From positions 1-21,808 of the IMG/VR virus record IMGVR_UViG_3300010396_000105: DNA of 21,808 bases. The stretch is one strand, 5' to 3'. The DNA is from a virus. Shown here piece after piece: positions 1 to 19,595 of this stretch; within the stretch, counting starts at the first letter, position 1, and every line of letters begins with the position of its first letter. The notes under the pieces are model-generated. The model had not been told where the DNA came from, did no database searches, and saw nothing but the letters and a program-made list of their open reading frames with translations. The position numbers were made by a program, and so were the translations under genes.

Positions 1-1390
1 CCGGATAACGTGGCTCGATCGGCGTGGGCCCTTCGAGGTCCGTCAGGTAGAAAGCGCAGAGCGGTTGAATGTTGTTTTCTTCGAGGTGATCGAAGCCGGG
101 TTGAAAATCCGTACCGCCGCCGCCGAACATCTCCAGTTCGATATCGCTGGACTCAGGCGTATATTCGACCACCTTCTGAACTTCGGTGTCGATATAGACC
201 ACAATGAGCTTCTCGGGGCGCACATCCCGAACCATGCCGCGCAGTTCGCCGCCGAACTGTTCCCGCAGATGATACGTTGAGCCGCTGGTATCCACGAAGA
301 TCACCAGCGTGCCAACATGCTCTTTACACGGCCCCGGCAGGATCATATCGAACGCTGCCATATAGCGTCGATTGGGAGTATGGAAGCTCGAGCGCGTCTG
401 AATGTTGTTATCCACAAACTGCCGCGTGATTGCTACCCAATCGACACCAGGCTCGCGAGATTCTTGAAGTGCTTCCGCTAGCGCACCGGGCATTTGGCCT
501 GCTTTGGACGCTTGCCGTTCGGCCGTGCGAGCCGCCAGATCCCATTCGTCCTCGTCGCCATCCTCGCCCGGTTCTGGACCGTCTTCGAAGTCGCCCGTTG
601 GTGAATCCTGCATGGGGTACTTCGCTTCATCGTTTGAGCCGTCGCCCTGTCCATCGGCAGAGCCATCGCCCTCGTTCTCGCCGGCGTCTTCACCCCCTGA
701 CGCATCGCCTTCGCCGGACCCATTCTCTCCGTCTTGCTGATCGTCCGAATCCTCCTCGCCCGAACCGTCAGGACCGCTATCGTCCTCCTGGCCCAATTCT
801 GGACCATCGTTACCATTCTCGTCCGATTTGTCGCTATCTTGTTCCTCCTGCGACTCGTCATCCTGGCAGGATTGAGGCTCATCCGAATCGTCGTCGTCCG
901 ACTCTTTGGTATCGTCCGATTCTTGCGGCTGCGGAGCTGGCGGTTTCGGCGGTTCGTTTTGGGCTTCCCGCCAAGAGAAGATCTCTTCTGCGCTCATACC
1001 ATCGAACTGCTCATCCAGCAAAACATTGGGGCTCAGTTCGAAACCCGCGTTTTGCAAGATCAGGTTGAGCCTGTAGTCGCACGCCTCATTCCATTTGAGA
1101 TTGTCGCGGCTGCCGCGGCGCCATAGATCCTTGAGTGCCGGGTGGCCGATCTCGTGCGCCATCAGGAACTCTTTCTGCTTGGGTGTGAGCGAGCCCCAAT
1201 ACTCGGGGTTGATTTCGACACTGACGCCATCCGTGTGCGCCGTCTTAATCGAGGGATTGATCTCCCAATCGAGCTTGTACGCAAGAAACGCAAATGCCGG
1301 CACGCGATGGAGCATACGCTCGCGCGTCTGCTCGATGTCTTTGCGAAACTGCCGCTCTAGGAGGGATTCAGTCTTGGCCGCTGTTGCCAC
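1..1390 (-). CDS. vWA-domain putative metallopeptidase (COG3864/DUF2201-like), 3' end cut by window
   Basis: The frame is open from a GTG at 1390 to the left edge (about 463 codons, C-terminus missing). The GTG is chosen because GGGAG lies 8 bases upstream; it overlaps the upstream gene by 23 bases. Residues 79-83 read HEIGH, an HEXXH zinc-binding motif, followed by ALKDLWRRG and NEACDYRLN, as in the DUF2201 N-terminal metallopeptidase-like domain. Residues about 150-270 form a very acidic D/E/S/G-rich linker. A von Willebrand A domain follows: VIFVDTSGST near residue 365 is a MIDAS DxSxS motif, with GGGTDFQPGF and FYLTDLEG further on. In this family such proteins occur beside MoxR-type ATPases, as here (2854-3942). 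Protease activity is not demonstrated; the role in a phage is inferred only from context. Confidence 0.88.
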   Translation of the reverse strand, partial: MATAAKTESLLERQFRKDIEQTRERMLHRVPAFAFLAYKLDWEINPSIKTAHTDGVSVEINPEYWGSLTPKQKEFLMAHEIGHPALKDLWRRGSRDNLKWNEACDYRLNLILQNAGFELSPNVLLDEQFDGMSAEEIFSWREAQNEPPKPPAPQPQESDDTKESDDDDSDEPQSCQDDESQEEQDSDKSDENGNDGPELGQEDDSGPDGSGEEDSDDQQDGENGSGEGDASGGEDAGENEGDGSADGQGDGSNDEAKYPMQDSPTGDFEDGPEPGEDGDEDEWDLAARTAERQASKAGQMPGALAEALQESREPGVDWVAITRQFVDNNIQTRSSFHTPNRRYMAAFDMILPGPCKEHVGTLVIFVDTSGSTYHLREQFGGELRGMVRDVRPEKLIVVYIDTEVQKVVEYTPESSDIELEMFGGGGTDFQPGFDHLEENNIQPLCAFYLTDLEGPTPIEPRYP

Positions 1391-1586
1391 GTGATTCACT
1401 CCCGTACTGTTCCATCAGCCGATCGACAGTCATGTGTGATAGATCGTCGTTGCCGTCAGCTTCCGCACAATCCAGCTCATACTCCAGAACGCTCAGGGCA
1501 TTCCAGTAGAGTGTCTGGGCTTCGAGCGCGTCATCTAGCGCGGCCTGAATTGCGGGCGTATTCTCCTTGAGTTCGACCGTAGTCAT
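1368..1586 (-). CDS. Hypothetical acidic small protein (72 aa)
   Basis: The protein begins MTTVELKENTPAIQAALDDA and is acidic and predicted helical, with no recognisable domain. The ATG at 1586 is preferred over an in-frame ATG seven codons upstream, because AAAGGAACGAAA lies directly before it; the upstream start would put this ribosome-binding site inside the gene. Its end overlaps the start of the vWA gene by 23 bases in another frame, so the two are probably translationally coupled. It sits between the DUF3150-like gene and the vWA gene, so it may be an accessory of that module. This is inference from position. Confidence 0.7.
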   Translation of the reverse strand: MTTVELKENTPAIQAALDDALEAQTLYWNALSVLEYELDCAEADGNDDLSHMTVDRLMEQYGSESRGNSGQD

Positions 1587-1614
1587 TTTCGTTCCTTTCT
1601 CTGCCAATCAGCAG
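1587..1614 (-). promoter_or_regulatory. Leader unit a: short hairpin plus AAAGGAACGAAAA ribosome-binding site
   Basis: On the - strand CTGC-tgattg-GCAG (1601-1614) is followed after two bases by AAAGGAACGAAAA next to the ATG at 1586. It is one of a family of leaders in this window. This copy lacks the usual TC after CGAA and has the shortest spacing to the start codon. Confidence 0.6.
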
Positions 1615-1665
1615 GCCCGGTTGCACTCACCCGTCGAATGCAACCGTCGTCTGCTTACTAGCGCT

Positions 1666-2769
1666 TTAGTACAGATCCGCTACTTGCTCGAGGATCTCTT
1701 CGGCCTGCGCCTTCACGTCGGCTTTCAGCGGAACACTGTTTCGAACATCGGCCGCGCTGTTCGTCGTGACCAGCGTCTCGAGCTTCTTCGCAAGCGCTTC
1801 GAGTCTCGAATCACCGGTGATGTTCAATTGCGGCACGCGGCTCGCGAATCGCGCGACGGATTTGAACAGATCTTCGCGAATAGCCGTCGCTTTCTTCCCG
1901 TTCTGGATCTCCGTCAGCTCTGTCTCGAACGCTGCGAGCTTTTCCGGTGTCAACGCGCCGGGCGTCGCCAGTATCGTTTGCAGTTCGGCTTGCAGCGCGG
2001 CAACTTTCACCTGTGGATCCACGACCTCTTCATCGAGCGCGGCGGTGAGTCGCTCGATCATCGCGGCCATTTCGTCGTACAGCGTGTCCATTGCTGCCGT
2101 CACAGCGTCCTGAGCGAACTGCTTTTCTTCCGCCCGAATCTGATCGATGATGTCTCTGCTTAAATCGACCCGGATATCAGCGCCGTCTGGAATACTCATG
2201 GTGCGGAACGAGGCCCGAAACCGTGTCTTCACCTGATCGAGCGTTGGGTAATCGGTCTCGCGATAAGCACCACCCAGCAGCGTTTTGGCCCGTTCTTTGG
2301 CTTCGGCATAGCGCGATTGACCGCTTGCCCCGATAGATTCGAGTTCGCTGATGACTAACGCGTCGTACTCAGTGATCGCGTCCATGATTTCCTTACGAGC
2401 ATCCGGATAAGCCGTGGCAGCCAAGATGCGCGTGGACCAAACGTTACCCCACGGCATCGACCAGCGTTTGAATGTCGAGGTGATCTTGTTCGCGGCCGTC
2501 CGCAGCTTCGCCAGAGACTCTTTCGGCAGCACGCTTTTCGTCGCGCGAATCAACTCCGCGTCCTGAATGCCGTTGTCGAAGACAAGCTGATCGCGCAGAT
2601 CTTCCGCCGTCACTTGCGCCGACCATTCCTTCACATTCACGATGACCAGTAGGGCTCGACTGCGAATGTCTACATGGCCTCGCGTGGGAGCTTCCGGTGT
2701 GCCAGGCGTTTGCTCTGGCGCGTTCAGCCGAACAGTCACATGCCGGCGTTTTCTCGGTTCACGTTTCAT
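1666..2769 (-). CDS. DUF3150-like helical protein of the MoxR/vWA module (367 aa)
   Basis: The protein starts MKREPRKRRHVTVRLN; the ATG at 2769 is chosen because AAAGGAACGAATC lies at 2777-2789. An in-frame start 18 codons upstream would translate the leader itself. After a basic N-terminal tail and a strand-like segment (SRALLVIVNVKEWSAQVT) the protein is almost all helical and charged, with EL/AE-rich coiled-coil-like stretches to the C-terminus. The order and content (segments such as LRTAANKITSTFKRWSMPWG and YDALVISELESIG) resemble DUF3150 proteins, which I know from ATPase-DUF3150-vWA gene trios in phages and mobile elements. I assign this from architecture and neighbours, not a profile search. 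A substrate adaptor or scaffold for the ATPase/vWA pair is plausible but unproven. Confidence 0.65.
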   Translation of the reverse strand: MKREPRKRRHVTVRLNAPEQTPGTPEAPTRGHVDIRSRALLVIVNVKEWSAQVTAEDLRDQLVFDNGIQDAELIRATKSVLPKESLAKLRTAANKITSTFKRWSMPWGNVWSTRILAATAYPDARKEIMDAITEYDALVISELESIGASGQSRYAEAKERAKTLLGGAYRETDYPTLDQVKTRFRASFRTMSIPDGADIRVDLSRDIIDQIRAEEKQFAQDAVTAAMDTLYDEMAAMIERLTAALDEEVVDPQVKVAALQAELQTILATPGALTPEKLAAFETELTEIQNGKKATAIREDLFKSVARFASRVPQLNITGDSRLEALAKKLETLVTTNSAADVRNSVPLKADVKAQAEEILEQVADLY

Positions 2770-2776
2770 TGGTTTC

Positions 2777-2809
2777 GATTCGTTCCTTTCTGTTTCCCCG
2801 ATCTTCGGG
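2777..2809 (-). promoter_or_regulatory. Leader unit b: hairpin plus AAAGGAACGAATC
   Basis: On the - strand CCCGA-aga-TCGGG (2797-2809, 5-bp stem) is followed by seven bases and then AAAGGAACGAATC (2777-2789), seven bases before the ATG at 2769. The same core occurs before several other genes in the window. Confidence 0.6.
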
Positions 2810-2853
2810 CTTGCAGCGCCCACGTTTACAATGAGCGCTGTGTAGTCCGGCTA

Positions 2854-3942
2854 TCAGGCTGCGAAGGACCAGTTAATGCTCGAATTGGTGAATAGGTCCG
2901 GCCGCTTGGCTGCCCAGGCGGTATACTGCGGCGTCGCTGTCACTTTCTTGCCATGCTTGCCAACCGCCATGTGCATCAGCAGAGTATCGAACTCGCTCGG
3001 CAGCCGCTCCGCATATTTGCGAATTGCCGAGAACTTCACCGGATCGCCCGAGTGATAGGCCAGCGCTCCGCACACGGCATACAGGATCGACGGGTTATCG
3101 GGTATCCGGGCCGTCGTCGGATTCTTGAGAATGTCGTCCGGCCGGATATTCGCCATGTAGATCTGAAAGAACGTCATGAACTGCCGCCCCACTGCGGATC
3201 CAACGCTGCCGACCACGTCCGCTTCGATCAGCCGTTCTGTCACCTGTAGCCTCAAAGCTACAGTCAGCGATTCACTGAACATCGCCCAGGTACGTGGATT
3301 GGCTGAAGACTTCAGCTTAGGATCGAACAGGTGAAGCATCTCCGGATGCAGCCGCAGGAACGCGATCACGGCCGGCTCGATCTCGTTCTGTGCCGCCCAT
3401 TCGCACCAATCGTCCAGATCAGGGATCACACACACATGCTTGAAACGAAGATTGAATGCGGAGCTGGTTCGAATCACCCCGGGATCATCCTCGTAGTTGC
3501 CGGCCACGAGTGTGACCATCTCGCTCGGCAGCTGATGTTCGCCGATCACCTTATCCCGCACCGGCTGCAGGGCGACATTGAGCATTTGCATGTTGTTGCG
3601 ATTCACTTCATCAATGAACCATACGCATTTTCCGGCATCCGCTGGCGGGATGAACGCTGGGCGCCGATAGCCTGATTGATCGTCCCCGATATTCTTGGGC
3701 ATCCCGTACAGGTCCACCACGTCGCGCCCAAGGAGCCTGGTCTCGAAGTATTTCCGGCCACTCGCGACGCTGACGCGGCGAATGACTTCGGTCTTGCCTA
3801 CCCCTGGATCGCCCCACAGGAATACAGGCTGCCCAGCCTCAATCTGAATCTGCAGGAATGCTTTGCATTCCGACATCTTTAGCGTGATTAATTCGTCCTG
3901 AAGCGGCGGTTTTCGGCCGATTTGTGCCCCATTTCGACTCAT
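2854..3942 (-). CDS. MoxR-type AAA+ ATPase (362 aa)
   Basis: This is a single AAA+ domain of the MoxR type. Walker A GDPGVGKT is at residues 44-51 and Walker B VWFIDE at 107-112. A sensor-1 asparagine lies in VAGNYED (N149), and an NLRFKHV segment follows near 164-170, where MoxR proteins carry NRF. The segment GRDVVDLYGMPK (72-83) and WCEWAAQNEI also match MoxR/COG0714 proteins, which are chaperone-like ATPases working with vWA-domain partners; such a partner is encoded downstream (1-1390). The ATG at 3942 has AAAGGAAACGAATC upstream (3948-3961). The enzyme is expected to be cytoplasmic and hexameric. Its target is unknown, but the three-gene set makes activation or remodelling of a protein by the vWA/HEXXH partner the best guess. 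Confidence 0.92.
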   Translation of the reverse strand: MSRNGAQIGRKPPLQDELITLKMSECKAFLQIQIEAGQPVFLWGDPGVGKTEVIRRVSVASGRKYFETRLLGRDVVDLYGMPKNIGDDQSGYRRPAFIPPADAGKCVWFIDEVNRNNMQMLNVALQPVRDKVIGEHQLPSEMVTLVAGNYEDDPGVIRTSSAFNLRFKHVCVIPDLDDWCEWAAQNEIEPAVIAFLRLHPEMLHLFDPKLKSSANPRTWAMFSESLTVALRLQVTERLIEADVVGSVGSAVGRQFMTFFQIYMANIRPDDILKNPTTARIPDNPSILYAVCGALAYHSGDPVKFSAIRKYAERLPSEFDTLLMHMAVGKHGKKVTATPQYTAWAAKRPDLFTNSSINWSFAA

Positions 3943-3947
3943 TATTT

Positions 3948-3988
3948 GATTCGTTTCCTTTCTTTCGTTTACCTTCCCGATCGCCGGG
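3948..3988 (-). promoter_or_regulatory. Leader unit c: hairpin plus AAAGGAAACGAATC
   Basis: The core at 3948-3961 has one extra A compared with the other copies. Upstream on the - strand lies CCCG-gcgat-CGGG (3976-3988). It precedes the MoxR-type ATPase start, with five bases between the core and the ATG. Confidence 0.55.
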
Positions 3989-4839: not shown

Positions 4840-5051
4840 TTGGTCTCCCGATCCGGTCTCCCGAATGCTTTCTCGCGCGCTCGATCTCGCGCGGCGCGGA
4901 AGTTGTCTCGAATGCTCACCGCTTGGTCTACCAGTTCGCGAGCCTGCGGAAGCCCGCCCAACTCGATAATGATGCTTTCCAGAAACACGTGGACAGCGCC
5001 CGCTTCCAGGGAAAGCTCTTGATACGCGCCTAATGGATTCGTACCTGCCAT
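4836..5051 (-). CDS. Hypothetical small helical protein (71 aa)
   Basis: It begins MAGTNPLGAYQELSLEAGAV, with two predicted helices; the second is rich in A, R and E (SIRDNFRAARDRAREKAFG). No family is recognised. The ATG at 5051 follows AAAGGAACGAATT by two bases, and the stop codon is overlapped by the next gene (ATGA at 4836-4839). It lies inside the leftward operon, and its neighbours on both sides carry cysteine-pair ribbons or are unknown. Confidence 0.68.
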   Translation of the reverse strand: MAGTNPLGAYQELSLEAGAVHVFLESIIIELGGLPQARELVDQAVSIRDNFRAARDRAREKAFGRPDRETK

Positions 5052-5053
5052 TC

Positions 5054-5092
5054 AATTCGTTCCTTTCTCTGTTGTACTCCCGAATCACCGGG
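5054..5092 (-). promoter_or_regulatory. Leader unit d: hairpin plus AAAGGAACGAATT
   Basis: On the - strand CCCG-gtgatt-CGGG (5079-5092) precedes the core AAAGGAACGAATT (5054-5066), which is two bases from the ATG at 5051. The last base of the core differs (T for C). Confidence 0.58.
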
Positions 5093-5383: not shown

Positions 5384-5862
5384 AGGGCAACTCCGTGGGC
5401 AGCGAGCAACTCTCTCAGCGCTGCCAGCTCGGCGAGCTGAGCTTTCATGACCGTGTTCACGCCCGATCCACTGCCGCGCTTGCGCGGCGTTGGTTGACCA
5501 AGCCTCGCATCCATCGCCTTGTTCTGGGCGATTCGTCTCTCCATCTGTTCTCGTGGGGTTAGAAGGTGATACGCCGGTGATTCATTGCCTAGCGTCTGCT
5601 GGGCAGCGAGCATCTCGGCCCGATTCTGCTTTCGTCTTGTCTCGGCCGCCGATTCATAAGGCGCCGGCTTATCCGTGATCCAGCAACGCTCATCTTTGGC
5701 TGAACACGACCAGCAGTAATGCCACCAACCGAGTGCGCCTGGCTGAACGGCTCGGAAGACGTCCTCCGATCCACAGTACGCGCATCCCTTGAAGTATGAG
5801 CCGACTTTGTAATACAGCTTCGTCTCGCGCCAAGCGACTGGATGAACGGTCCGGACGGCCAT
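5380..5862 (-). CDS. Zinc-ribbon protein with coiled-coil tail (160 aa)
   Basis: The N-terminal third has CAYCGSEDVF and, about 23 residues on, CWSCSAKDERC, giving a CxxC...CxxC zinc ribbon. The remainder is helical and rich in A, R, Q and E (REQMERRIAQNKAMDARLG), with a basic stretch TPRKRGSGSG before a final leucine-rich helix. Nucleic-acid binding is plausible from the ribbon plus basic patch but is not shown. The ATG at 5862 is only two bases after the stop of a 50-residue gene, and its own stop is overlapped by the next gene. Confidence 0.72.
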   Translation of the reverse strand: MAVRTVHPVAWRETKLYYKVGSYFKGCAYCGSEDVFRAVQPGALGWWHYCWSCSAKDERCWITDKPAPYESAAETRRKQNRAEMLAAQQTLGNESPAYHLLTPREQMERRIAQNKAMDARLGQPTPRKRGSGSGVNTVMKAQLAELAALRELLAAHGVAL

Positions 5863-5864
5863 CT

Positions 5865-6017
5865 TTAACCGCGCCTCCCGATTTTCACCAACCGCGCAGA
5901 GGAAACGTAGACTTCAGCCATAGCTAAACTCTCGGCTCTCCTTCCGCTGATCGGACCACCCCAAAGGATTCTCACAAAGAAATCAACATCCTTCAAATAC
6001 TTCACTATTAGATTCAT
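5865..6017 (-). CDS. Hypothetical small protein (50 aa), first gene of leftward operon
   Basis: The frame reads MNLIVKYLKDVDFFVRILWG and ends VKIGRRG. AAAGGGATGG (6022-6031) is four bases upstream of the ATG at 6017, a good ribosome-binding site. The stop is two bases from the next ATG, so the gene is in register with the operon. No domain is recognised. It is the first gene after the candidate promoter near 6168. Confidence 0.6.
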   Translation of the reverse strand: MNLIVKYLKDVDFFVRILWGGPISGRRAESLAMAEVYVSSARLVKIGRRG

Positions 6018-6021
6018 ATAT

Positions 6022-6072
6022 CCATCCCTTTCTCTTCCTGTGTCCTCACTGCCCGTCCACCGCGCAGCGGTG
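6022..6072 (-). promoter_or_regulatory. Leader unit e: perfect hairpin plus AAAGGGATGG
   Basis: On the - strand CACCGC-tgc-GCGGTG (6058-6072, 6-bp stem) precedes AAAGGGATGG (6022-6031) and the ATG at 6017. The hairpin-then-purine-core arrangement matches the other leaders, but the core is divergent. Confidence 0.5.
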
Positions 6073-6163
6073 AACCGTCAGCTTCTCAGTCTTTACGAAC
6101 GAACTCGTCCTGACCATACGCACCTATCCCAGGTTTTCTGGCTGGTTGAAAGTGACACACTTC

Positions 6164-6172
6164 ATTGTATCA
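6164..6172 (-). promoter_or_regulatory. Candidate extended -10 promoter for the leftward operon
   Basis: The - strand reads TGATACAAT, an extended -10 (TGnTACAAT). A weak -35-like TTCTCA lies 17 bases upstream of TACAAT. Transcription would start about 140 bases before the first gene (ATG 6017). The sequence match is good at the -10 only. Confidence 0.4.
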
Positions 6173-6561
6173 GGGCATACTGGAAGTGAGAAGCATAAAA
6201 AGTACTGTTTTCAAGCACATGGCCGATTGGGATATTGACGGTCGCAATTCCGTTCTGTGCTTTCCCCGAATCGATACGGACGCGCGAATCACAGCGAGAG
6301 GCACGGAAGAAAAACCGCCGCCGCGCTCGTCACAAACGCGAGAGAACCGATTTCTGTCGGCGCGTATATAACAATGGTCTTCTGAGACGAAAGCGGCCGC
6401 TCGAGCTGCTTGGTGAGCGAAAACGTAATGCCGTGATATCAAAACGGGCTAGATTCACGCAAAACAGCCGATTTCGTAAGTACGTTGCGAATGAACCACT
6501 TAGTCACGGTCGCTCACGGGACGAGTATCGCGTTTGCGAAGAGGCCCAAACGTGAAGCGAC

Positions 6562-6660
6562 TGTACCACTAATGTGCACTTGTGGAACGGTTTTCTGCCA
6601 GAGTGACTGTCAATAGAATCAGTTACTTAGGCTCACAGCTAGAGGTACATTTGTGGTACA
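6562..6660. repeat. Inverted pair of 16-17-bp sites, possible operators
   Basis: TGTACCACTAATGTGC is on the + strand at 6562-6577. TGTACCACAAATGTACC is on the - strand at 6644-6660. The two copies share 14 of 16 positions, face each other and are about 65 bases apart. Paired operator-like sites between two operons suggest a repressor or activator target, but no matching regulator is identified. Confidence 0.5.
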
Positions 6661-6864
6661 TTTTGTCCAAGTCAGAAATGACTTCCTACAGCGGCCATCG
6701 GCGCGGGCTCTAACCATGCCCCAAAGCTGGCCGTTCTTTTTAACGAGCCATCCCATCGTCGAGCGAGGGATACGCAAGACCGCCGACGTAGCGCCTCGGC
6801 ATGGGATTCGGTTAGGGCTGGCGTTCGAGCGCGTGGCTCCAGGCCGCAGTCCGCCTGGTGAATG

Positions 6865-7171: not shown

Positions 7172-7177
7172 TGTTTT

Positions 7178-7217
7178 GATTCGTTCCTTTAGCCTGATCA
7201 TCAGCACACGGAGGCTA
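7178..7217 (-). promoter_or_regulatory. Leader unit f: hairpin abutting AAAGGAACGAATC
   Basis: On the - strand TAGCCT...AGGCTA (7190-7217, 6-bp stem, 16-base loop) runs directly into AAAGGAACGAATC (7178-7190), six bases from the ATG at 7171. Here the hairpin 3' arm shares a base with the ribosome-binding site, so folding could influence translation. Confidence 0.58.
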
Positions 7218-7651: not shown

Positions 7652-7658
7652 TGTTTTT

Positions 7659-7694
7659 GATTCGTTCCTTTGTGTATTGATATCTGAAGACACA
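7659..7694 (-). promoter_or_regulatory. Leader unit g: AT-rich hairpin plus AAAGGAACGAATC
   Basis: On the - strand TGTGT...ACACA (7671-7694, weak 5-bp stem) overlaps the core AAAGGAACGAATC (7659-7671) by one base, before the ATG at 7651. The stem is weak; the core is identical to units b and f. Confidence 0.55.
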
Positions 7695-14003: not shown

Positions 14004-14048
14004 AACCCGCCAGGGTTTGCCCAGCGGGTTGAAAGAAAGGAACGAATC
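14004..14048 (+). promoter_or_regulatory. Leader unit h: hairpin plus AAAGGAACGAATC before the portal region
   Basis: AACCCGC (14004-14010) pairs perfectly with GCGGGTT (14024-14030). Five bases later the core AAAGGAACGAATC (14036-14048) occurs, one base before a GTG. It is the only + strand copy of the leader family and stands at the head of the capsid gene block. Confidence 0.62.
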
Positions 14049-14049
14049 A

Positions 14050-14148
14050 GTGTCGCGTTCAAGGACGGTCTCGGAAGAGACTTGGCAGGAACGAAAACCG
14101 ATTACGTCGCTCCTATCTTCTCACGCTAATTCATGTCAGGTCAATTGA
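14050..14148 (+). CDS. Short upstream ORF overlapping the portal start (32 aa)
   Basis: The frame begins with GTG one base after the AAAGGAACGAATC core and reads MSRSRTVSEETWQERKPITS to a TGA 16 bases inside the portal gene. The portal ATG (14133) has no ribosome-binding site of its own, so translation of this peptide could deliver ribosomes to it. The peptide has no recognisable domain; its value may be only regulatory. Confidence 0.42.
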   Translation: MSRSRTVSEETWQERKPITSLLSSHANSCQVN

Positions 14149-16370
14149 TTAGGCCGCCCCAGGCGGCGCTCGTACCGGTACCAGTTCGCGCGCAGAACAT
14201 CCGCAATCTGGATACGGATCAGTGGTTTGGGCCGTTACAGCCGCTTCAGCCGATCGCGCCGATTGGTACTCAGCCGAGACAGTTCGAGTACCTGCCCGGG
14301 CAAAATCTCATTTGGCAGCCACGCGCCGATGAGCCGATTTCGTTTCAGGACATGATCTACATGGCCGATAACTGTGACCTGGTTCGCATTGTTATCGAAG
14401 CCTTGAAGGATCAGATTTGCATGCGCGAGTGGCAGGTACGCGTAGTTGCACAGCCCGGCGAGTCGCAAAAGGACCGAGCTACCCGAACGGCAAGTGATCC
14501 GCGGATTGCTCAGTGGACTTCGTTTCTGAAATGGCCGAACCCGGATCAGTGTTGGAGCGATTTTCTGCGCATGCTGCTCGAGGACCTCTTTGTTCTCGAC
14601 GCGCCTTCGATTCTCCTGCAGCGGACGCTGGCCGGCAAACTCGGTGCCTTGCGAGTCATCGATGGGCAGACCATCACACGTCTGATTGATGACCAGGGGT
14701 TTACCCCACAGCCGCCCAATGCTGCCTATCAGCAGATCCTGTACGGCATGCCCGCTGTGGATCTGACTGTCGACGATCTGATCTACCGGCCACGCAATCA
14801 GCGTGCCAGGAAGATCTACGGCTTTTCGCAGGTCGAACAGATCCTGCTCACACTGAACATCGCCATTCGGCGACAGAGATTCCAGTTGAGCTACTACACG
14901 GAAGGAAACGTCCCGGAAGCCCTCTACACGATGCCCAAAGACATCACGGAGGATCGTATCCGCGAGTTTCAAAGTTGGTTCGATCTGCAGATGGCTGGCA
15001 ATCTTGCCAACCGGCGCCGCATCTGGTTTATCCCTGGAGACGACAAGGGTGTGAACCGGCTGCACTGGACGAAAGAAGCATTGCTCAAGGATGAGGCGGA
15101 TGAGTGGTTTGCCCGCATTATCTGTTTCGCGTTTCGCATCAGCCCGAAAGAGCTGATCAAGATCATGAACCGGGCGACCGCGGCCGAAAGCCAGGACTCG
15201 TCCGAAGAGATGGGCGTTCATGTCATGTGCGAGTGGATTTCGGAGACCGTCAACTGGATCATCCAGCGCAAGGCAGGCGATGCCGATCTCGAGTTTGTCT
15301 TCAACCAGAAGCGGGAAGCGGACATTCTCAAGCAAGCGCAAACCGATAGGATCTATGCTGACTCCGGTATCCGCAATCGCAACGAAATTCGCGAAGACCT
15401 CGGCGACGATCCCTCGCCAGATCCGAATGCCGATATTCTGGGCATCACTACCCAACAGGGTTTTTTACCTCTCGACCTCGCCCAGAAACAGATTCAGGCG
15501 GAGATGTCCGCAACCGGCGCGGGGGCTTCGCCCGGCGAAAAACGTCCCGCCGTCTCAAGCAAAGCGCCCGCCCCGAAGCAGAACAGCTCAAAAGTTCTGA
15601 AGGTAGACGGCCAGCTGCTACCCGGTCTGTCCAGTGCGAGTACGGTAGACACCTTCGCCCAAAAGGTGGAGAGCTTCCTGCATGATGCGGCCAGCAGAGC
15701 TGCAAGTAAAGCGGAGACGCCCTACATCCGAAAAGCGGCCGGAGACGAGGAGTTGGATGACCTACTGGACGCTATTGACAGCGCGATCGATTGGGACCTG
15801 CTGGTGGAGGCTACCTCTCAGGAGCTATTTCGCGCGACTGCACAGGGCGCCTCGGTCGGCATCGGTCAAGCTCAGATAAACGACATTGGAACAGTAGCCA
15901 AGGCAAGCGATGCAGCTGCCGACTATGCGAAGAAACGTGCCGCCGAAATGGTGGGTAAGCGTTGGAAGAACGGCCAGCTGATCGACAACCCGGACGCGCA
16001 GTGGCGGATTGACAAGACCACGCGTACTATTCTGCGCGAACTGATCGAGAAGGCGTTCTCGGAAGGCATCTCCCGTCACGAGCTCGCCCAGCGCATCAAG
16101 GCCTCGACCGCATTCGATGATTCGAGAGCCAAGATGATTGCGCGCACGGAAATCGTCCGCGCTCAGTCGATGGGTCAGGTTGCAGTCTGGAAGACGGTCG
16201 AGACAGACCCGCATGTCCGTTGGCTTGCCGGCGGCGCGAATCCATGCCCCGAATGTCTTAGGAACCAAGCAGCCGGCTCGCTCCCGTTAGGAAAAGCGTT
16301 TCCCAGCGGCGATATTGTCCCGGGAGCTCACCCGAATTGCAATTGTTCGCTGCTTCTTTCGCGCGTATGA
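14133..16370 (+). CDS. Portal protein fused to MuF-type head morphogenesis domain (745 aa)
   Basis: Residues about 60-445 are a phage portal domain: the segments DDLIYRPRNQRARKIYGFSQ, LSYYTEGNVPEALY and ICFAFRISPKELIKIMN are typical of portal proteins that form the dodecameric DNA channel at the capsid vertex. After a P/S/K-rich linker (455-490), residues about 500-745 are a phage Mu F-like domain, with IARTEIVRA (669-677), CPEC (705-708) and HPNCNC (733-738). In most phages these are two genes; here one frame carries both without a stop. Start is ATG at 14133 without a clear ribosome-binding site. The stop overlaps the next start as ATGA. Confidence 0.92.
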   Translation: MSGQLIRPPQAALVPVPVRAQNIRNLDTDQWFGPLQPLQPIAPIGTQPRQFEYLPGQNLIWQPRADEPISFQDMIYMADNCDLVRIVIEALKDQICMREWQVRVVAQPGESQKDRATRTASDPRIAQWTSFLKWPNPDQCWSDFLRMLLEDLFVLDAPSILLQRTLAGKLGALRVIDGQTITRLIDDQGFTPQPPNAAYQQILYGMPAVDLTVDDLIYRPRNQRARKIYGFSQVEQILLTLNIAIRRQRFQLSYYTEGNVPEALYTMPKDITEDRIREFQSWFDLQMAGNLANRRRIWFIPGDDKGVNRLHWTKEALLKDEADEWFARIICFAFRISPKELIKIMNRATAAESQDSSEEMGVHVMCEWISETVNWIIQRKAGDADLEFVFNQKREADILKQAQTDRIYADSGIRNRNEIREDLGDDPSPDPNADILGITTQQGFLPLDLAQKQIQAEMSATGAGASPGEKRPAVSSKAPAPKQNSSKVLKVDGQLLPGLSSASTVDTFAQKVESFLHDAASRAASKAETPYIRKAAGDEELDDLLDAIDSAIDWDLLVEATSQELFRATAQGASVGIGQAQINDIGTVAKASDAAADYAKKRAAEMVGKRWKNGQLIDNPDAQWRIDKTTRTILRELIEKAFSEGISRHELAQRIKASTAFDDSRAKMIARTEIVRAQSMGQVAVWKTVETDPHVRWLAGGANPCPECLRNQAAGSLPLGKAFPSGDIVPGAHPNCNCSLLLSRV

Positions 16371-18074: not shown

Positions 18075-19595
18075 ATGAGTTTAGAGTTGCTAGACCAGTC
18101 GCAATACGCGCACATGGCCGCGCAAGCCACGAAGGCCTTGCGCAAAGATGCGACCACTCAAGGCATTACGACCGGCCTTGGGATGGTCTTCTTTGACCTT
18201 CGACCACCGGCCTACCTGCTGTATCCCCTCAACACGCCCCTGCGAAACAGTATTCCTCGCAGCGGGAAAGTGAACGCGGGTGTAGGTACGGCCGCGCACT
18301 GGAAAGCGTATGTAAACCCCAACGCGACCTCGAACTACTCGGGCGTCGCGGAAGGGCAACGCAACGCCTTCCTCAGCTTCCAGGAGAAAGACTACACCGC
18401 CGCTTATAAAGAAATCGGCCAAGAGTCTTTCACCACGTTCACCGGGCAGTTTGCTGGCGAAGGGTTCACCGACCCAATGGCCGATTCGCAAACCATGGTG
18501 CTGCACAGCATCATGCTGTCGGAAGAGGGGATGCTTCTCGGCGGAAACGCCTCGAACGCCCTCGGAACGCCGGCACAGCCCACTGTTGTACTGAAGACCG
18601 GGACCGGTATCACGACTGCGACCAATGTTTCCGTTGCCGTCGTGGCCTTGACCCATTTCGGTTACCAGATTCAGGGCGGCTCTGCGGCCGTAGCGAACGG
18701 CTTGGCGCCCACCACCACGCGGAATAACGCGGACGGCACGACCACGACTGTCAATGGTGGGACCAGCCACATCTCCGCAATGTCGGCTGTTGTCACAACG
18801 ACCGGCGGCACGCTGACTGTTCTGGCATCGGTTACACCGATTGCGGGCGCAGTGGCGTATGCCTGGTATGTCAACTCGACGGATGCTTCCAGCCCGTCAT
18901 TGTCGAACGCCAAGCTCGCGGCTGTGACGACCGCACCCAGCTACCTCATCTCGGCCTTGCCGAATAGCGGCAACCAGACTGGTGCGGCCACCGGCCTAAA
19001 CACCGACTGCTCCCAGAATTCGCTCAGCTTCGATGGTCTTCTGACGATCGCAGCCATGAACGGGATCTGGAACAACCTGAACGGCGCCAGCCTGACGCCG
19101 AACTCCGATGGGACGATCCAGGAGTTTGAGACAGTGCTTTCCACTTTGTGGAATAACTACCAGGCGACCGTCGACGCAATTTACGTGTCCAGCGATCAGC
19201 TGTCTCTGGTTACCCGCGCCATTATGGCCGGCTCCGGCGGCAACCCGTCTGCCTTCCGCTTTAATCTCGCGGCTGGTGGAGAGCAGGGCAAAATCGTGGG
19301 CGGCTCTTTGGCAGTCAGCTATCTGAGCAAGTACACCATGACCGGTGTGAAGGATATCCCGATCAAGCTGCACCCTGCTTTGACACCCGGGACGATCTAT
19401 TTTGACATCTCGACCAATCCCTATCCTAATAGCCGGTTGACGAATGTCCGAGAGATCCTGACGCAACGGGATTACTACACGTTGCTCTATCCTCTGCGGA
19501 CCCGTCGTTGGGAGTACGGTACGTATGTGCACGAAGTCCTGGCACATCGTCTCCCTCAATTGACGGCCGTCATCAGCGGCGCTGCAACGAGCTAA
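18075..19595 (+). CDS. Major capsid protein with Ig-like insertion (506 aa)
   Basis: Location directly after protease/scaffold, AAAGGA five bases before the ATG, and sequence style identify the major capsid protein. The N-terminal part (residues 1-160) has QEKDYTAAYKEIGQESFTTF, and the C-terminal part has NVREILTQRDYYTLLYPLRT, as seen in HK97-fold capsid proteins of large-capsid phages. Between about residues 165 and 312 lies a T/S/G/V-rich, strand-forming insertion with VSVAVVALTHFGYQIQGG and VLASVTPIAGAVAYAWYVNS, reminiscent of fibronectin/Ig-like repeats, likely exposed on the capsid surface. A cleavable delta domain is not obvious, because the scaffold is separate. Confidence 0.85.
   Translation: MSLELLDQSQYAHMAAQATKALRKDATTQGITTGLGMVFFDLRPPAYLLYPLNTPLRNSIPRSGKVNAGVGTAAHWKAYVNPNATSNYSGVAEGQRNAFLSFQEKDYTAAYKEIGQESFTTFTGQFAGEGFTDPMADSQTMVLHSIMLSEEGMLLGGNASNALGTPAQPTVVLKTGTGITTATNVSVAVVALTHFGYQIQGGSAAVANGLAPTTTRNNADGTTTTVNGGTSHISAMSAVVTTTGGTLTVLASVTPIAGAVAYAWYVNSTDASSPSLSNAKLAAVTTAPSYLISALPNSGNQTGAATGLNTDCSQNSLSFDGLLTIAAMNGIWNNLNGASLTPNSDGTIQEFETVLSTLWNNYQATVDAIYVSSDQLSLVTRAIMAGSGGNPSAFRFNLAAGGEQGKIVGGSLAVSYLSKYTMTGVKDIPIKLHPALTPGTIYFDISTNPYPNSRLTNVREILTQRDYYTLLYPLRTRRWEYGTYVHEVLAHRLPQLTAVISGAATS

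What the first reader, a model, noticed from the sequence alone, without database searches (positions are those of the whole stretch)
1..3942. Phage-borne MoxR ATPase / DUF3150-like / vWA-HEXXH module
Three leftward genes combine a MoxR-type AAA+ ATPase, a helical DUF3150-like protein and a vWA protein that also has an HEIGH metallopeptidase-like motif and a long acidic linker. In bacteria such pairs work as chaperone-like activation machines. In a phage this could be a host-takeover, assembly or defence-related device, and its function is not established. The set takes up 4 kb in a phage segment with otherwise small unknown genes, so it is likely important to the phage.
Basis: partly seen in the sequence, partly recalled or inferred. 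Interest (0 to 1): 0.65.

Follow-up and report, generated by a model that had tools for sequence, protein, structure and literature searches.

The report
Three-part AAA+ machine on phages
The window really does carry a three-gene molecular machine (an ATP-driven ring protein, a helper protein and a protease/adaptor protein) that recurs, nearly always as the same trio, in many phages and on large bacterial plasmids; its exact target is unknown, but it tends to sit with early and DNA-replication genes rather than with particle-building genes.

Summary
Positions 2854-3942, 1666-2769 and 2-1399 (all leftward) encode a midasin/MoxR-type AAA+ ATPase, a divergent DUF3150 protein and a DUF2201 protein (zincin-like domain with HEIGH, disordered acidic linker, vWA with a complete MIDAS). 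The last gene is cut by the record's left end.

The trio recurs. Of 120 non-redundant viral loci, 100 carry all three genes. In a reciprocal search starting from the DUF3150 protein alone, 76 of 79 loci had all three, in three gene orders. Trios also lie on about 40 large plasmids and in scattered genomes.

The ATPase + metallopeptidase-vWA pair is already in print (N4 gp24/gp25; Iyer et al. 2021, proposed virion assembly). New here: DUF3150 as a near-constant third partner, the trio on plasmids, frequent company of Nmad5 and DNA-replication genes, and a repeated leader shared with other leftward genes. Plasmid occurrence and N4 middle expression argue against virion assembly. Best reading: an ATP-driven remodelling/clipping machine of the early or DNA-metabolism programme. 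Target unknown.

The parts
2854..3942 (-). AAA+ ATPase, midasin/MoxR-type (AAA_5), 362 aa; PHROG 1297; relative of N4 gp24
   Evidence: best PDB profile match is a Midasin AAA domain, E 2.5e-29; K50 in 187 of 191 relatives (the other 4 are gaps), N149, R166 and R217 in 191 of 191
1666..2769 (-). Divergent DUF3150 protein (third component); the ORF opens at 2823 but ATG 2769 is the likely start; alpha/beta head plus C-terminal helical bundle
   Evidence: AF2 model pLDDT 89.3, pTM 0.77; BFVD match to a phage DUF3150 protein E 6e-14; start site
2..1399 (-). DUF2201 protein: zincin-like metallopeptidase domain (residues ~1-150), acidic disordered linker (~165-280), vWA/MIDAS domain (~336-465+); cut off by the record's end; PHROG 1314; relative of N4 gp25
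1142..1156 (-). HEIGH (HEXXH) codons, vWA-protein residues 82-86
   Evidence: computed from the frame of ORF 2-1399; conservation
278..292 (-). MIDAS DTSGS codons, vWA-protein residues 370-374
   Evidence: computed from the frame of ORF 2-1399; conservation
1368..1607 (-). Small 79-aa ORF between the DUF3150 and vWA genes, overlapping the vWA start; uncertain gene
   Evidence: no Pfam, PHROG or NCBIfam hit
2773..2789 (-). Leader/RBS repeat AAAGGAACGAATCnAAA ahead of the DUF3150 ATG (2769)
   Evidence: 6 sites (0-3 mismatches) in the window against 0.17 expected
3944..3960 (-). Variant copy of the same leader repeat (3 mismatches) directly ahead of the ATPase ATG

Best explanation
The three genes encode one ATP-driven protein-remodelling machine of mobile elements. 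Shown: the ATPase has intact AAA+ motifs; the partner protein has an intact MIDAS in a vWA domain and an intact HEXXH + Asp zincin-type site, joined by a flexible acidic linker; a DUF3150 protein accompanies them in most relatives. Inferred: the ATPase forms a ring as MoxR/midasin proteins do; the vWA/MIDAS domain grips an acidic residue of a substrate or adaptor; DUF3150 is a third subunit that docks or selects substrate; ATP hydrolysis pulls the target apart or out of a complex, and the zincin domain may clip it. Also inferred: the target belongs to DNA replication, DNA metabolism or host takeover during the early/middle phase, not to the virion.
For: Three-way linkage: 100 of 120 non-redundant viral loci have all three genes; reciprocal DUF3150-seeded search 76 of 79; three gene orders, always co-directional; correlated distances r 0.61-0.78 against at most 0.13 in permutations. 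Anatomy: HEXXH residues 149-152 of 155, D108 153, MIDAS 154-155 of 155; AAA motifs. Fold: weak Foldseek matches of the vWA model to NorQD (E 0.025), to human MDN1-MIDAS/UBL and to selecase, a metallopeptidase; VIA-align Z about 10 to vWA domains. ATPase profile best match Midasin, E 2.5e-29. Early/DNA context: recurrent neighbours are a DNA-polymerase-type exonuclease, primase/helicase, PD-(D/E)XK nuclease and SNF2 helicase; terminase genes lie on the other strand in most loci where seen; N4 gp24/gp25 are middle transcripts (PMC4193335). Plasmids without virions carry whole trios. Shared leader with other leftward genes in the window.
Against: No biochemical or genetic test of any member was found. 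Ring formation, MIDAS ligand, peptidase activity and target are inferred. N4-like phages and many bacteria have the pair without DUF3150, so DUF3150 is not universally needed. Some plasmid and desulfobacterial copies have lost HEXXH, so proteolysis cannot be the core activity everywhere. The correlated distances were not corrected for shared ancestry. Proximity to replication genes does not prove a replication role.
Confidence: 0.5

Rival explanations
1. Virion-assembly chaperone-protease: the machine folds or clips structural proteins during head or tail maturation, as proposed by Iyer et al. 2021 for the jumbo-phage pair and inferred from experiments for the MoxR-vWA pair p618/p892 of the archaeal virus ATV.
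For: PMC7824862 proposes it; ATV p618 is in virions and interacts with virion proteins, one located in the tails (PMC4124505); S-TIM5 has an Hsp20 gene next to its pair and a virion-protein gene nearby.
Against: Trios on plasmids that make no virion; N4 gp24/gp25 are middle genes; terminase genes lie mostly on the strand opposite the trio, as in this window.
Confidence: 0.17
2. Counter-defence or host-takeover device: the machine disassembles or cleaves a host immune complex, or another host protein, on behalf of phages and plasmids.
For: Shared by phages and plasmids, sporadic in the genomes sampled, accompanied by Nmad5 in 31 of 120 loci, a gene whose mutation alters Tmn sensing in Dhillonvirus (PMC11846954).
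Against: Core status of the pair in Schitoviridae by at least one method (PMC7650795) is broader than expected for a dedicated anti-defence gene. No known anti-defence family was identified among the neighbours searched.
Confidence: 0.18
3. Metal-cofactor or chelatase-like activation: a CobS/CobT-like AAA-vWA pair inserting a metal or activating an enzyme.
For: The ATPase matches the porphyrin-biosynthesis PHROG 249 at 6.4e-6; NorQ-NorD and CbbQ-CbbO pairs activate enzymes (own knowledge; NorQD is the top fold match).
Against: No chelatase large subunit or recurrent metalloenzyme was seen next to the trios; a HEXXH domain is not part of CobT (own knowledge).
Confidence: 0.08

Closest known systems
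Phage N4 gp24/gp25 (Schitoviridae pair)
   Same: Homologous ATPase and metallopeptidase-vWA protein, adjacent and co-directional; HEXXH and MIDAS conserved.
   Different: No DUF3150 gene between or near them in the N4-like loci examined.
MoxR AAA+ / metallopeptidase-vWA pair of group 2.2 jumbo phages (Iyer et al. 2021, PMC7824862)
   Same: Same two-domain architecture of the vWA partner and the same kind of ATPase.
   Different: Described as a pair; no third component and no plasmid context in the passages read; virion-assembly role proposed there.
Midasin (Rea1/MDN1)
   Same: Closest solved AAA domains by profile (E 2.5e-29); MIDAS domain acting with an AAA ring.
   Different: Midasin is one giant chain acting on pre-ribosomes and has no zincin domain (own knowledge); here three separate proteins.
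NorQ-NorD, RavA-ViaA, CbbQ-CbbO bacterial MoxR-vWA pairs
   Same: AAA+ ATPase plus separate vWA protein; NorQD is the top Foldseek match of the vWA model (E 0.025).
   Different: Weak match; no metallopeptidase domain and no DUF3150 (own knowledge); host roles.
ATV p618/p892 (archaeal virus MoxR-vWA)
   Same: Virus-encoded MoxR-type ATPase with a vWA partner, binding shown (PMC4124505).
   Different: No peptidase domain in ATV's pair; tail development in an archaeal virus.
MoxR-vWA ternary conflict systems (VMAP, iSTAND, FtsH, beta-propeller; PMC7159879)
   Same: Three components built on a MoxR-vWA core; weak bpMoxR match (21.3 of 27 bits).
   Different: Third component is DUF3150, not VMAP, iSTAND, FtsH or a beta-propeller; carried here by phages and plasmids.

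Membership tests
MoxR/midasin-type AAA+ ATPase | Intact Walker A, Walker B, sensor 1 Asn and conserved arginines | tested here: met
   K50 187/191, D111 189/191, N149, R166 and R217 191/191 across relatives; the role of the two arginines as fingers is inferred
   11.7 bits against 27; AAA_5 PF07728 is met instead, 26.7 against 22
MoxR/midasin-type AAA+ ATPase | Gene next to a vWA partner | tested here: met
MoxR/midasin-type AAA+ ATPase | Hexameric ring and helix-2 insert | not tested
   the two structure jobs went to the other two proteins; oligomers cannot be predicted here
DUF2201 metallopeptidase-vWA | PF13203 and PF09967 above cut-off | tested here: met
   130 and 57.1 bits against 23.2 and 26.4
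DUF2201 metallopeptidase-vWA | HEXXH plus downstream Asp, and DxSxS MIDAS | tested here: met
   present in the window; conserved in about 96% and over 99% of 155 sequences
DUF2201 metallopeptidase-vWA | Peptidase activity | not testable with these tools
   sequence and model only
DUF3150 (PF11348) | Pfam cut-off met by the window protein itself | tested here: not met
   no hit
DUF3150 (PF11348) | Homology to members that hit the profile | tested here: met
   26 of 76 aligned relatives hit PF11348, best 8.3e-12; predicted fold matches a phage DUF3150 protein, E 6e-14. Hence 'divergent relative', not a profile-level member
N4 gp24/gp25 pair | Homology of both proteins and co-directional proximity | tested here: met
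   here a DUF3150 gene lies between them
MoxR-vWA ternary conflict systems | bpMoxR cut-off or one of the named third components | tested here: not met
   bpMoxR 21.3 of 27 bits; no such Pfam domain on the third protein
CobS/CobT cobaltochelatase | CobN-like large subunit in the neighbourhood | tested here: inconclusive
   not among the recurrent neighbours identified; the record is a fragment

The most novel reading that the evidence does not exclude
DUF3150 is an obligate third subunit of a distinct mobile-element AAA+ machine, shared by phages and conjugative plasmids, that remodels or clips a DNA-metabolism or host complex early in infection or plasmid entry; Nmad5 is an extra or alternative partner.
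Probability: 0.4. Interest if true: 0.68.

Novelty: new variant of a known kind. Interest (0 to 1): 0.5.

Why it matters
N4 gp24/gp25 are counted among the core genes of a phage family, yet no tested function was found for them here. Tying their wider family to a fixed third protein and to plasmids that make no virions turns a vague 'phage chaperone' into a defined three-part system with testable residues (Walker, MIDAS, HEXXH), and points experiments towards DNA metabolism or host proteins instead of particle assembly. It also indicates that the 'HNH endonuclease' label given to PHROG 1314, and to N4 gp25 in RefSeq, has no support in the domains found.

Tried and rejected
Close relatives of the window itself: megablast against phages found none; viral-contig scans with the middle protein, the ATPase and the first two-row alignment found none. 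Phage G gp569 as a DUF3150 protein: rejected, it looks like a coiled coil. VBP47 ORF 5431-6732 as its vWA: rejected, wrong ORF, so its partner was not identified. DUF3150 and Nmad5 as one family: no profile match. PF11348 search in the window and three phage records: nothing. Solved-structure profile search for the DUF3150 protein gave only chance-level hits; its fold had no PDB match better than E 0.37 and the VIA-align rows are generic helical bundles, which does not show that the fold is new. A link to CobS/DUF3150/vWA genes that I recall from SXT/IncC elements was not supported by the plasmid search (one search lists none) or the papers. Papers holding the word DUF3150: none.

Full report
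What is there. The window is a complete 21,808-bp virus record, classed as a linear fragment. Three leftward ORFs fill its left end. The vWA gene (2-1399) carries PF13203 and PF09967, that is DUF2201, and runs off the record. The middle protein has no Pfam hit of its own, yet it is homologous to proteins annotated DUF3150, and 26 of 76 relatives hit PF11348. Its ORF opens at GTG 2823, but ATG 2769 has a better ribosome-binding site and a leader shared with other leftward genes.

Surroundings. The right half is a rightward head/packaging module: small and large terminase subunits, a portal gene joined to a MuF-like domain, and a head-tail adaptor. The leftward genes between it and the trio have no assignable function. 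A 17-base leader, AAAGGAACGAATCnAAA, occurs six times with up to three mismatches against 0.17 expected; five sites are on the leftward strand, including those ahead of the ATPase and DUF3150 genes. This suggests that the trio belongs to the leftward regulatory unit, divergent from the structural genes.

Conserved residues. Among 155 vWA proteins from phages, plasmids, genomes and viral contigs, the HEXXH residues are kept in 152, 149 and 152, the downstream Asp in 153, and the MIDAS DxSxS in 155, 155 and 154. The exceptions inform: two plasmid copies (Paraburkholderia dioscoreae, Variovorax) have lost HEXXH and two desulfobacterial copies have HTVMH, all with an intact MIDAS. Two further non-matches are truncated or gapped, and one protein (L092) has Thr for the last MIDAS serine. 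So the MIDAS function is the constant one, and peptidase activity is usual but dispensable. In 191 aligned ATPases the sensor Asn and two arginines never vary.

Recurrence. A profile of the vWA protein retrieved 80 viral loci; 58 hold all three genes, 51 in the order ATPase-DUF3150-vWA, 5 with DUF3150 first and 2 with it last; 6 more have DUF3150 and vWA only, and 15 have ATPase and vWA only. Starting instead from the DUF3150 protein, 76 of 79 newly fetched loci hold all three on one strand, and two of the other three lie at a contig edge. Some contigs are shared by the two searches. After removing duplicates, 100 of 120 viral loci hold the trio. Loci were chosen by similarity, so these are proportions among relatives, not prevalence in phages. 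Pairwise distances of the three proteins correlate (r 0.61-0.78; permutation maximum 0.13), without correction for shared ancestry.

Beyond phages. Thirty-nine plasmid records hold the DUF3150 protein and 54 the vWA protein, mostly large Burkholderiales plasmids. In the nine loci read in detail with both (L014-L017 and L019-L023) the order is the same, with an ATPase upstream; in L016 other genes intervene, and in L023 the ATPase frame is split. Three lie near a PRTRC cassette (L015, L017, L020) and four directly upstream of type IV secretion genes (L015, L020, L022, L023). Among 70 genome loci fetched by the vWA profile, 26 hold the trio, some of them plausibly plasmids or prophages. In sampled genomes the DUF3150 family is sporadic: 2 others of 198 in the phylum of L050's genome and none of 184 others in the class of L044's. 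In the short stretches fetched for those two, the full trio was not confirmed.

Neighbours in viral loci. Recurrent families include a DNA-polymerase-type 3'-5' exonuclease (26 loci), Nmad5 (31 loci, 9 of them without DUF3150, where it can fill the middle slot), an HslV-family peptidase (14), primase/helicase (11, mostly on the other strand), a PD-(D/E)XK nuclease (8) and an SNF2 helicase (6). Terminase clusters lie mostly on the strand opposite the trio. Nmad5 and DUF3150 are not detectably related. In Dhillonvirus, a single nmad5 change abolishes sensing by the Tmn defence (PMC11846954); whether that bears on this system is unknown.

Structure. The DUF3150 model is confident (pLDDT 89.3, pTM 0.77): an alpha/beta head and a C-terminal helical bundle. 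Its significant viral-library matches are a protein named DUF3150 and uncharacterised phage proteins. The vWA model shows an N-terminal domain whose helix 73-88 carries HEIGH, a disordered acidic linker, and a vWA domain. Foldseek's best matches, all weak, include NorQD, human MDN1-MIDAS and the metallopeptidase selecase; VIA-align gives Z about 10 to vWA domains over 104-108 residues. The ATPase profile's best solved relative is a Midasin AAA domain (E 2.5e-29).

How it most likely works. Shown: intact motifs, and three proteins that travel together. Inferred: an AAA+ ring with a MIDAS partner that grips an acidic residue, as midasin does (own knowledge of that system), a DUF3150 subunit that docks or selects, and an optional clip by the zincin domain. 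Early/DNA context, plasmid occurrence and N4 middle expression (PMC4193335) favour a DNA-metabolism or host-directed target over virion assembly, the role proposed for the jumbo-phage pair (PMC7824862). I hold this at 0.5.

Known or new. The pair is known: N4 gp24/gp25 and the jumbo-phage MoxR plus metallopeptidase-vWA pair. No paper in the library holds the word DUF3150, so the trio seems undescribed there; most subscription papers are not covered. I file it as a new variant of a known kind.

Noticed in passing
window 2773-2789, 3944-3960, 5050-5066, 7174-7190, 7655-7671 (-); 14036-14052 (+): Repeated leader AAAGGAACGAATCnAAA (6 sites, 0.17 expected); on the leftward strand it precedes start codons, suggesting a shared RBS/leader and later starts (e.g. 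ATG 2769, about 7171 and 7651) than the longest ORFs.
   Followed up: partly
PHROG 1314; N4 gp25 in NC_008720 and similar records: The metallopeptidase-vWA family is labelled 'HNH endonuclease' in PHROGs and RefSeq phage records; Pfam finds no HNH domain in the window's member.
   Followed up: partly
L106, L137, L138, L143, L147, L155, L162, L166: In these phage loci an Nmad5-type protein sits between the ATPase and vWA genes where DUF3150 usually is; in 22 other loci Nmad5 accompanies a DUF3150 gene.
   Followed up: partly
L015 and L021 (plasmids), L029 and L035 (genomes): HEXXH degenerate (LKVMQ, ATVLH, HTVMH twice) with the MIDAS intact.
   Followed up: partly
L247:5759-6202 and similar genes in 13 other loci: An HslV-family peptidase (PHROG 1040, E 1e-22) lies downstream of the trio on the same strand in 14 non-redundant viral loci.
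   Followed up: no
L015, L017, L020, L022, L023: On Burkholderiales plasmids the trio lies near a PRTRC (ParB/ThiF-related) cassette (L015, L017, L020) and/or just upstream of type IV secretion genes (L015, L020, L022, L023).
   Followed up: no
window 14133-16370 (+): The portal protein appears fused to a MuF-like head-morphogenesis domain (PHROG 2662 nearly full length, PHROG 2468 at the C-terminus).
   Followed up: no
window 18075-19595 (+): 506-aa protein of PHROG 13692 (unknown function, E 4.8e-81) where a major capsid gene would be expected.
   Followed up: no
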